Shown here: in pieces, positions 6,561-8,651 of the stretch
How the letters are laid out: the number at the start of each line of letters is the position of its first letter
Position numbering within the stretch: position 1 is the stretch's first letter
From: Monilinia fructicola
Lineage: Eukaryota; Ascomycota; Leotiomycetes; Helotiales; Sclerotiniaceae
DNA length: 64,000 bases
Assembly: GCA_008692225.1 (NCBI GenBank)
Contig: VICG01000009.1
Coordinates: 1,550,001 to 1,614,000, forward strand
Reading direction: 5' to 3'
The notes under the pieces: generated by a model
Told to the model about the DNA's origin: nothing
The model's input: the letters and a program-made list of their open reading frames with translations, nothing else
The model's database searches: none
Translations under genes and position numbers: made by a program

Positions 6561-8651
6561 TCACCTCGTCCTGATGGTCGCGTTCCCCAACGCACTGGCG
6601 TCAGTCACGTTGCCGTAGACCCAGCCGTCCTCGCTCTGCATGGCACCCCACGCGCCCTCCAAACCCCAAACGCTGGCGGCGACGACGACGCCCTCGTTCA
6701 AGCCGGCCGTGCCCACGACGAGCGTGTCCAGCTTGCCCTCGGGGAAAAAGGTCATGGTGCCGCTGCTGCGGCCGGCGTCGAGGAAGACCTCGAGGACGGT
6801 GCGGTCGATGACGACGTCGAGGGTGAAGGTGCCCTGGTCGTTGATGGTGTTGCCGACGGAGAAGCGGTCGGTGAAGAAGGGGTTCGTCTCGGCGAAGCCG
6901 TGGAGGTTGCGGCGCGAGAGCCAGAACGGCGCGTCGCCGCCGAGGTACATGCCGCCGGAGACGGACTCGCCGGTGCTGCTGGCGGAGAAGGTGAAGTTGA
7001 GGGTGCCCTGGGCGAGGGTGTTGTTGGGGATGTTGGTCACGTTGACGGAGAGGTAGAGGGCGCCGCTGGGGACCGAGGCCGCGTACTCGACCGAGAGGTT
7101 GCCGTTGCCGAGGTGGGCGTTGGCGGCGAGGGCGCCGATGCGTTGTAGAGCGGGCTCAGGTCGAAGGGGTAGGAGATGAGGGACCAGCCGGTGCGCGTCA
7201 CGTTGGCGAGGTGCGTGCGGCGGGGGAGGGACATGGAGCTGCGCCAGCCTTCGAGCTCGCCGGTCGGCACCTGCTGCGCGTATTCCCAGTTGCTGATCCA
7301 GGCGAGGAAGACGGGGTCCTCGTCGGCGGGGATGCCGTGGAAGAATTGCCCGGCGTAGTTGTCCTTGGAGAAGTCGGAGAGACGCGTGGCGGAATCGAGA
7401 GGGGGTGAAGTGCGTGCCGTTGAACGTGCCGGGGAAGTATTGGGTGGTTGATCCGCCGAGAGGCGCACCCGGGTTGATGGAAATTATGAGGAGGTACGTG
7501 TCCTCGTCACCAGTGCCGCCGGCGACGGGGATGGGGACCAAGTTGGGGCACTCGTATTGCAGACCGAGCAGACCGTGGTGGCTGAAGTTGGAAGCAGCAG
7601 TCCATTCTTTGAGATCGGGAGACGTGAAGATGCCGATTTCGAAAGCGCGGGCGTACGCCACGACCATGACCCAGTGGTCCTTGAACCAGGTAACGTGAGG
7701 ATCACGGAACTGGGTCGAGGTGGATGGGATGACGGGGTTGCTGGAGTACTTCTCAAAGGTGTAACCGCCATCGAAGGAATAGGCGATGTTTTGCGTCTCG
7801 GACTCTGGAGTGTTGAGGGTGTAGATTGCAATGACACCGTTGGTTTGGTTGGGGAAGAACCCGGAGGTGTTGTTTGCATCGATCACGATACTTCCACTGA
7901 AAATGCCTTCGTCTTTTCGGTCTCGGAGAGAGGGCGATCTTTTGGTTGGTCCAGTGGTAGAGATCCTTGGATGTTGCGTGGCCCCAATGTTGGTTTCCTG
8001 CAACAACTTCGGTTGGGTTGTCTGAGGTAATGTTAGCCTTGGAACGGTGTGAAGGGATTGGGAGAGGTACATTGATAATAGACGTGGTAAACACCCTCGG
8101 CATCTTTGAACAGTCCGTTTGGATCATTCATGAAGTTTTGAGGTGGAGAGTAATGAATCTGAGGTCTTAAAATCTCCGGTGTAATTGCCTCGAAGAGGTG
8201 CATCTTTGGGAGCACTGTTCCATGCTGGAGCTACTGGAGGTGACGTTGCCTCAGCTCTTTTGAATTCACCAGTCACCGAGTCTGGTTCCGGGGCTCTCTT
8301 ATCAACTATTGGTGTTGCTTCAGCTCTTTTAAATACACCCGTTACCGAGTCTGGTTCCGGGGCTCTCTCATCAAGTAATGGTGCTGCTTCTTCTTCTCTC
8401 TTTGCGAGATAAGGAGCAATTGTTGCTGTAGGTTCTGCTCTCTCTTGGAGAGGAGGAGGAATAGTCTTTACTGTGGGTTCGGCTCTCTCTGCGAAATAAG
8501 GAGCAATTGTTGCTGTAGGTTCTGCTCTCTCTTGGAGAGGAGGAGGAATAGTCTTTACTGTGGGTTCGGCTCTCTTAACTTGAGTGATAAAATCCGCATT
8601 GCATGCTGCAGCGGTCAGAAGACCGACAGCCAAAGAAGTGAAGCGAACCAT
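6561..8651 (-). CDS. Secreted GH32 invertase (beta-fructofuranosidase) with Kex2-type repeat leader; frameshifted
   Basis: Glycoside hydrolase family 32, expected to split sucrose (possibly fructans) outside the cell. The ATG at 8651 starts a signal peptide (to about residue 19). Residues 28-85 are two 29-aa repeats and 97-142 two 23-aa repeats, each bounded by KR or ER. The catalytic part follows with NDPNG (nucleophile Asp), FRDP (transition-state Asp) and YECPN (acid/base Glu), and a C-terminal beta-sandwich ending at 6561. One intron, 8022-8070, splits YYQ/YNP. Four single-base indels break the frame: 8167-8172 (extra base), T-run 7914-7917 (extra), G-run 7401-7405 (extra) and near 7140 (missing). 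With them allowed for, the length is exactly 680 codons (679 aa). A leader of about 165 residues before the domain is unusually long for the family. Codons after 7500 are markedly GC-rich compared with the leader. Confidence 0.85.
8226..8363 (-). repeat. 69-bp tandem repeat encoding a 23-residue unit
   Basis: Two copies encode residues 97-119 and 120-142 of the invertase leader. Each begins APEPDSVTG and contains FKR and, in the first copy, DKR. The nucleotide copies are nearly identical over their 5' half. Confidence 0.85.
8397..8570 (-). repeat. 87-bp tandem repeat encoding a 29-residue unit
   Basis: Two near-identical copies encode residues 28-56 and 57-85 of the invertase leader. They differ at only two residues (F/L and E/K). 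Each unit is itself two half-units, one starting AEPTVK and one AEPTAT, each closed by ER or KR. Confidence 0.9.

What the first reader, a model, noticed from the sequence alone, without database searches (positions are those of the whole stretch)
8226..8570. Invertase carries a Kex2-punctuated repeat leader, like a peptide-precursor protein fused to an enzyme
Between signal peptide and GH32 domain, residues 28-142 consist of two tandem repeat families (29-aa x2, 23-aa x2). Each repeat or half-repeat ends in KR or ER and the next starts AE or AP. KR followed by X-Ala/X-Pro-type ends is the layout of fungal Kex2-processed repeat proteins, pheromone precursors and some RiPP precursors, where Kex2 and a dipeptidyl aminopeptidase release several short peptides. 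Fused to a catalytically complete invertase, it would let one transcript secrete an enzyme and repeated 10-15-residue peptides. Seen: repeats, KR sites, intact NDPNG/RDP/EC motifs. Inferred: processing and any peptide function. A simple cleaved pro-region that expanded by slippage is the duller alternative.
Basis: partly seen in the sequence, partly recalled or inferred. Interest (0 to 1): 0.75.

Follow-up and report, generated by a model that had tools for sequence, protein, structure and literature searches.

The report
Invertase with repeat-expanded cut-off leader
A sugar-splitting enzyme of a brown-rot fungus carries, between its export signal and the enzyme proper, a probably disordered stretch of short repeats with likely protease cut sites; the repeats are real and vary in number, but they most probably form a throw-away pro-region, and it is unproven that the pieces do anything once cut off.

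Summary
The repeats are real. On the minus strand (8169-8651) a likely signal peptide is followed by a 105-residue pro-region (residues 28-132, window 8256-8570) of eight 10-15-residue units, seen as 29 aa x2 and 23 aa x2. Its 8 arginines all sit in KR (4) or ER (4) pairs; with the KR at residue 27 there are 9 candidate cuts, 8 followed by AE or AP, but only 5 dibasic.

The invertase is not open in this assembly: four frame changes that are not introns. A database Monilinia fructicola protein (P0001) is intact, and the window encodes 660 of its 664 residues, so assembly indels are likely. P0001 and a nameless fragment (P0122) lack one 15-aa unit. The one other Monilinia protein listed (M. fructigena) has a short leader with two dibasic sites; of 14 Botrytis-Sclerotinia-type relatives read, 1 (an odd model) has any.

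Best reading: a Kex2-type secretory pro-region, expanded in M. fructicola, cut last at EFKR|AEATSPP. It fails published Kex2 repeat-protein thresholds under dibasic cutting, and no UstYa gene was found in the window. Release of several peptides stays possible, because Kex2 tolerates Glu at P2.

The parts
8571..8651 (-). Start codon, likely signal peptide (about residues 1-20) and DFITQVKR; first dibasic site at residues 26-27
   Evidence: ORF; signal peptide inferred from the hydrophobic stretch and CNA|D, no predictor run
8526..8570 (-). Unit A1 AEPTVKTIPPPLQER (residues 28-42)
8484..8525 (-). Unit B1 AEPTATIAPYFAER (43-56)
8439..8483 (-). Unit A2 AEPTVKTIPPPLQER (57-71), identical to A1 over 45 nt. 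P0001 and P0122 are 15 residues shorter here (extra window stretch 8424-8468)
8397..8438 (-). Unit B2 AEPTATIAPYLAKR (72-85), ends in a dibasic site
8364..8396 (-). Unit C1 EEEAAPLLDER (86-96)
8325..8363 (-). Unit D1 APEPDSVTGVFKR (97-109), ends in a dibasic site
8295..8324 (-). Unit C2 AEATPIVDKR (110-119), ends in a dibasic site
8256..8294 (-). Unit D2 APEPDSVTGEFKR (120-132); its KR is the likely pro/mature junction and has a counterpart in M. fructigena (QFKR|AEATSPP)
8169..8255 (-). Likely start of the mature enzyme AEATSPPVAPAWNSAPKDAPLRGNYTGD
   Evidence: frame change to the GH32 frame at about 8170
8114..8128 (-). GH32 nucleophile motif NDPNG, in another frame than the leader
8022..8070 (-). 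49-nt intron, GTACCT...CTCAG, inside P0001 codon 179
   Evidence: boundaries read by eye
7548..7706 (-). GH32 motifs RDP (7698-7706) and EC (7548-7553)
6561..8170 (-). GH32 invertase coding region; frame changes that are not introns near 8170, 7913-7924, 7401 and 7130
   Evidence: the four GH32N matches found in this genome all lie here

Best explanation
The gene encodes the GH32 invertase of Monilinia fructicola, made as a pre-pro-protein. Shown: a leader with a hydrophobic start, a 105-residue repetitive region with regularly spaced [K/E]R-A[E/P] junctions (very low model confidence, so probably disordered), then an invertase with all three catalytic motifs, intact in another database entry of the species. 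Inferred: signal peptidase removes residues 1 to about 20; a kexin in the late Golgi cuts at the dibasic sites, above all at EFKR|AEATSPP, and more slowly at the LxER sites; the mature invertase starts near A133; the pro-region pieces are by-products whose length is weakly constrained. Also inferred, from two species only: the dibasic pro-region was gained in the Monilinia lineage (the M. fructigena model has a short version with a dibasic site at each end; 13 of the 14 Botrytis-Sclerotinia-type proteins read have none) and grew in M. fructicola by duplication of units, still varying within the species.
For: Leader on an intact GH32 protein in P0001, and running into GH32 exon 1 in the fragment P0122. 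The last dibasic site and the mature start have counterparts in M. fructigena (QFKR|AEATSPP) while the middle does not: pro region 21-117 of P0001 has 19 identities in 29 aligned residues with 68 gapped, against 25 of 26 (3 gapped) in 118-146 and 449 of 491 (27 gapped) in 147-664. One 15-residue unit differs between the window and P0001/P0122, and A1 and A2 are identical at DNA level. The leader has very low model confidence (P0001 residues 7-131 below pLDDT 50, rising after that). Candidate kexin (P_proprotein domain) and DPP-IV-type loci exist in the genome. A K-to-R change in P0122 leaves that dibasic site dibasic. Precedent: yeast glucanases such as Exg1 are Kex2 targets (passage), and about 30% of 120 effectors surveyed have a putative Kex2-cut pro-domain.
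Against: No cleavage, transcript or proteome data here. The [KRE]R-A[EP] pattern exceeds chance even with one copy per unit family, more regularity than a neutral spacer needs, though common descent of the units may explain it. The M. fructigena leader comes from a gene model that lacks about 26 residues elsewhere, so its shortness could be an annotation artefact. Only two named Monilinia species were found.
Confidence: 0.7

Rival explanations
1. Peptide precursor fused to an enzyme: a kexin cuts at KR and at LxER, releasing up to eight 10-15-residue peptides with each invertase molecule, and these peptides act outside the cell.
For: All 8 pro-region Arg lie in [KRE]R; 8 of 9 cuts are followed by AE/AP. 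Kex2 tolerates Glu at P2 and prefers Leu at P4, as in LQER. The D copies differ by 3 synonymous and 1 non-synonymous codon. Hum3 of Ustilago maydis is a precedent for Kex2-type repeats joined to a folded domain (passage).
Against: Fails dibasic repeat-protein thresholds. The C copies differ by 5 non-synonymous and 0 synonymous codons and the A+B copies by 2 and 0. Dipeptidyl-peptidase signature after 2 of 9 cuts only. No repeats in the M. fructigena model. No second copy of the leader found in the genome (next match E 0.56, 33% identity). No UstYa match in the window.
Confidence: 0.13
2. Retained N-terminal extension: the repeats stay on the secreted enzyme as a disordered stalk, like the long N-terminal extension of Rhodotorula dairenensis invertase.
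For: R. dairenensis invertase has a 168-residue N-terminal elongation, of which Ser140-Asp168 is modelled in the crystal; a variant without residues 21-139 stays active, with altered kinetics (passages). Very low model confidence in the leader here. ER sites may not be cut.
Against: The R. dairenensis extension is Ser/Thr-rich (40%); here residues 28-132 have 2 Ser and 11 Thr of 105, the P0001 leader has no N-glycosylation sequon, and there are five dibasic sites.
Confidence: 0.12
3. The broken frames are real and this strain carries a recent pseudogene, so the leader is secreted alone as a 175-residue protein.
For: Four frame changes that are not introns; the leader ORF runs to a stop at 8124; the protein collection holds that 175-residue ORF as a protein (P0121).
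Against: In-order exact blocks cover 660 of 664 P0001 residues, so there is no substitution outside the four uncovered residues. The published assembly that seems to be this one has 88% complete and 10% fragmented BUSCOs, as leftover indels would give. No other GH32N locus was found in the genome. I saw no reads.
Confidence: 0.05

Closest known systems
Kex2-processed pro-domain proteins (K2PP effectors; yeast glucanases that are Kex2 targets)
   Same: Signal peptide, N-terminal pro-region without structure, KR/RR or LxxR cut, then a folded secreted protein
   Different: The pro-region here is tandemly repeated with many cut sites, varies in unit number, and precedes a GH32 enzyme, not an effector
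Kex2-processed repeat proteins (KEPs): alpha-pheromone precursors, ustiloxin-type precursors, Rep1
   Same: Short tandem units bounded by Kex2-like sites behind a signal peptide
   Different: Fewer than three similar units between dibasic sites; most of the protein is an enzyme; no UstYa match in the window
Hum3 of Ustilago maydis
   Same: Tandem repeats with putative Kex2 sites followed by a folded domain (passage)
   Different: 17 repeats of 31-36 residues and a hydrophobin domain, not an enzyme
Rhodotorula dairenensis invertase (PDB 8beq)
   Same: GH32 invertase with a long N-terminal extension not required for activity
   Different: Ser/Thr-rich and O-glycosylated, partly seen in the crystal; the paper's main text has 0 occurrences of Kex2 or propeptide
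Kluyveromyces inulinase with a short Kex2-cut propeptide (recalled, not tested; one search found no paper)
   Same: GH32 enzyme matured at a KR
   Different: Very short propeptide without repeats

Membership tests
Kex2-processed repeat protein, Le Marquer 2019 | Signal peptide | tested here: inconclusive
   Hydrophobic N-terminus read by eye; no SignalP available
Kex2-processed repeat protein, Le Marquer 2019 | At least four fragments after cutting at KR/RR | tested here: met
   Five KR sites in the leader; two RR sites in the mature part of P0001 besides
Kex2-processed repeat protein, Le Marquer 2019 | At least three similar fragments between KR/RR sites | tested here: not met
   Leader fragments of 58, 24, 10 and 13 residues; at most two share the APEPDSVTG core; judged by eye, the paper's FIMO step was not run
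Kex2-processed repeat protein, Le Marquer 2019 | Repeats make up at least 15% of the protein | tested here: not met
   2 x 13 of 676 residues, about 4%; counting ER sites 4 x 14 of 676, about 8%
Kex2-processed repeat protein, Umemura 2020 | At least three tandem repeats of 8 or more residues between KR/KK/RK/RR | tested here: not met
   Same fragments as above; the paper's repeat-scoring code was not run
Kex2-processed repeat protein | STE13 signature (XA or XP after the cut); recorded where present, not obligatory | tested here: not met
   1 of 5 dibasic sites, 2 of 9 counting ER
Ustiloxin-type RiPP precursor | UstYa (DUF3328) gene close by | tested here: not met
   0 of the 30 matches lie in the window; the only one on this contig is about 149 kb away
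Kex2 pro-domain protein | Disordered N-terminal pro-region ending at KR/RR/LxxR before the folded domain | tested here: met
   P0001 residues 7-131 pLDDT under 50, taken as disorder; last KR at residues 116-117 of P0001
Kex2 pro-domain protein | Actual cleavage by Kex2 | not testable with these tools
   Needs protein or in vitro data
GH32 invertase | GH32 domains and NDPNG, RDP, EC motifs | tested here: met
   Pfam; alignment of P0001 with invertase 9tdx
GH32 invertase | One open gene in this assembly | tested here: not met
   Four frame changes besides the intron; P0001 is intact

The most novel reading that the evidence does not exclude
A repeat-number-variable, kexin-cut multipeptide leader on the invertase of a brown-rot fungus: every invertase molecule secreted co-releases several short Pro/Glu/Thr-rich peptides, coupling sugar release to peptide signalling or defence. 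This would be an enzyme-fused relative of the Kex2 repeat proteins that surveys miss because they accept only dibasic sites and, in one survey, demand that repeats fill 15% of the protein.
Probability: 0.12. Interest if true: 0.65.

Novelty: new variant of a known kind. Interest (0 to 1): 0.35.

Why it matters
If it is only a pro-region, it is a neat case of a secretory propeptide that seems to have been gained in one fungal lineage and to vary by whole units within one species, and a caution that survey thresholds for Kex2 repeat proteins pass over enzyme fusions and LxER sites. If the pieces are active, invertase secretion would be a delivery route for peptides. It also shows an assembly in which the one GH32 gene found is split by frame changes, so gene models made from it can mislead.

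Tried and rejected
Rejected: leader and GH32 as separate genes (P0001 and P0122 join them). Rejected: an intron explaining the leader/GH32 frame change; the P0122 open reading frame runs from the leader through exon 1 and on into the intron, so it is unspliced. Considered: a false intron making P0001 short; set aside because P0122, an unspliced ORF, has the same junction. Rejected: ustiloxin-type cluster. Rejected: a second copy of the leader elsewhere in the genome (next best E 0.56, 33% identity). Led nowhere: paper searches on Kex2 and inulinase propeptides (0 papers), Kex2 and invertase propeptides (2 papers on yeast expression hosts, listing only), enzyme-peptide precursors (1 unrelated paper, listing only); GH32, invertase and KEX2 in two Monilinia genome papers (0 occurrences; 0); enzyme or hydrolase in PMC6339444. 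tblastn of P0001 on the window joined the frames with gaps and was replaced by exact-block matching. Site positions printed are 18 too high; one search gives the right ones.

Full report
What is there. On the minus strand, an ORF at 8651-8124 begins MVRFTSLAVGLLTAAACNADFITQVKR and continues with eight units: AEPTVKTIPPPLQER, AEPTATIAPYFAER, AEPTVKTIPPPLQER, AEPTATIAPYLAKR, EEEAAPLLDER, APEPDSVTGVFKR, AEATPIVDKR, APEPDSVTGEFKR, then AEATSPPVAPAWNSAPKDAPLRGNYTGD. At DNA level these are an 87-nt repeat x2 (95%) and a 69-nt repeat x2 (88%). Dibasic sites end at residues 27, 85, 109, 119 and 132; ER ends at 42, 56, 71 and 96. All 8 Arg of residues 28-132 are in [KRE]R; 7 of these 8 are followed by AE or AP, against a mean of 0.11 in shuffles (0 of 20000 reach 7). 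With one copy per unit family it is 3 against 0.07 (1 of 20000). Dibasic sites alone are weaker: 4 against 0.92 (58 of 20000), and 2 against 0.43 with one copy per family (783 of 20000). The units may share descent, so none of this proves selection.

Is it fused to the enzyme? In this assembly the leader frame stops at 8124, and the GH32 pieces lie in other frames or after frame changes. The database holds P0001 (named Monilinia fructicola MFRU_012g01940, 664 aa), which joins the same leader, one unit shorter, to GH32 in one protein. The window encodes 660 of its 664 residues in in-order exact blocks of 7 or more; the four uncovered are residue 179 at a 49-nt intron and residues 212-214 at one frame change. 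Besides the intron there are four frame changes, near 8170, 7913-7924, 7401 and 7130. An old pseudogene would show substitutions; outside the four uncovered residues there are none. The genome has 44,028,109 bases in 20 contigs. A published M. fructicola Mfrc123 assembly has 44,047,900 bases in 20 scaffolds, made from Illumina and PacBio reads, with 88% complete and 10% fragmented BUSCOs (passages), and a later paper remarks on that low score (passages). That the window is this assembly is my inference (the sizes differ by 19,791 bases). Leftover indels are the likely cause of the frame changes; I saw no reads.

Variation. P0001 and P0122 (190 aa, no organism named, unspliced ORF) lack 15 residues that the window has, with the same junction AEPTVTIAPYLAKR: one unit more or less. 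P0122 also has D-to-G in LLDER and K-to-R in VFKR, the latter leaving a dibasic pair. Copies inside the window: the A+B copies differ by 2 non-synonymous codons (one of them is the ER/KR difference), the D copies by 3 synonymous and 1 non-synonymous, the C copies by 5 non-synonymous and 0 synonymous. So the D units look constrained and the C and A+B units do not; the counts are too small for a test.

Relatives. The M. fructigena protein P0002 has FITQARR|AEPAVRLAGRQELDSAIGQFKR|AEATSPPAWNS: a dibasic site at each end and the mature start are there, the repeats are absent. Its model also lacks about 26 residues in the enzyme, so the short leader could be a model artefact. In a MAFFT alignment with P0001, region 21-117 has 19 identities of 29 aligned residues and 68 gapped; region 118-146 has 25 of 26 and 3 gapped; region 147-664 has 449 of 491 and 27 gapped. 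Of the 240 database proteins fetched, 21 lacked the core motif of my pattern and were dropped (among them P0121, the window's own leader ORF); the other 219 include bacterial proteins and fragments, and 3 have under 20 residues before the core. Of these 219, 8 had KR or RR from residue 20 on and before the core: P0001, P0002 and P0122 of Monilinia type, and P0008, P0046, P0128, P0160 and P0177, most of which look to me like mis-extended or faulty gene models; P0128 has SKR just after a hydrophobic stretch. A further 24 of 219 have only an expanded [LIVAPF]xxR match there; some of these sit where a pro-region could end (P0065 LVER, P0178 LFAR, P0180 FAER, P0184 LTER), so single Kex2-like ends of the xxER kind may occur on other GH32 enzymes. 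Of the 14 Botrytis, Botryotinia, Sclerotinia, Stromatinia, Ciborinia and Clarireedia proteins read (P0003-P0016), none shows these repeats, and one, P0008 (Botrytis sinoallii, an odd N-terminus), has a dibasic site there. One search scored the 7999 candidates sharing most words and lists 120 of 7288 matches, so more distant relatives were not examined.

Structure and enzyme. AlphaFold2 on P0001 with 32 other rows gives mean pLDDT 72 and pTM 0.75; residues 7-131 are below 50, the block 131-140 averages 66 and 141-150 averages 82. P0001 aligns over residues 120-649 with PDB 9tdx, an invertase, with NDPNG, FRDP and ECPN aligned. The four GH32N matches found in the genome are all pieces of this gene.

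Processing. Candidate kexin (P_proprotein domain, C2:2183366; the protease domain was not searched) and dipeptidyl-peptidase (DPPIV_N, C15:1449656) loci are present. A review (parts 1 and 2 of 3 of its text read) says Kex2 prefers Lys at P2, lists Glu among the five best alternatives, prefers Leu or another aliphatic at P4, and finds Asp at P3 unfavourable. So LQER (twice) is a plausible site, FAER less so, LDER poor; VDKR also has Asp at P3. The dibasic sites are QVKR, LAKR, VFKR, VDKR and EFKR.

Comparison. Two published definitions of Kex2-processed repeat proteins require three or more similar repeats between dibasic sites, and one also 15% coverage (methods sections read). Judged on the fragments, neither is met; I did not run the authors' code. 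Counting ER sites gives four AEPT units, which would meet the number of three, but still about 8% of the protein. UstYa matches in this genome: 30, none in the window. Nearest precedents: Kex2-cut pro-domains, yeast glucanases that are Kex2 targets (passages), Hum3 with Kex2-type repeats before a hydrophobin domain (passages), and the Rhodotorula dairenensis invertase with a 168-residue N-terminal elongation (passages). The searches for a printed case of Kex2 repeats on an invertase or other secreted enzyme found none; they cover open-licence papers only.

Verdict. A real, polymorphic, repeat-expanded pro-region on an otherwise ordinary invertase. The peptide-release idea is not excluded, but nothing found here requires it.

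Noticed in passing
window 10116-10240: An array of head-to-tail CTTCAGA-type heptamers, read by eye, upstream of the invertase gene.
   Followed up: no
P0057 and P0063: Two lichen-fungus entries (Calogaya, Xanthocarpia) combine a GH16 domain (PF00722) with GH32: either fused genes or merged gene models.
   Followed up: no
G000 C15:1449656-1450786: The DPP-IV-type gene matches in more than one frame with short overlapping pieces, possibly more frame changes of the kind seen in the invertase, or introns.
   Followed up: no
window 39532-40794: C-terminal GH3 and Fn3-like domains in one ORF; the N-terminal part of the gene would lie in another exon or frame.
   Followed up: no
window 12625-13980: CDC20/Fizzy-type WD40 protein with its whole WD40 domain in one open frame, a neighbour without visible frame changes.
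   Followed up: no
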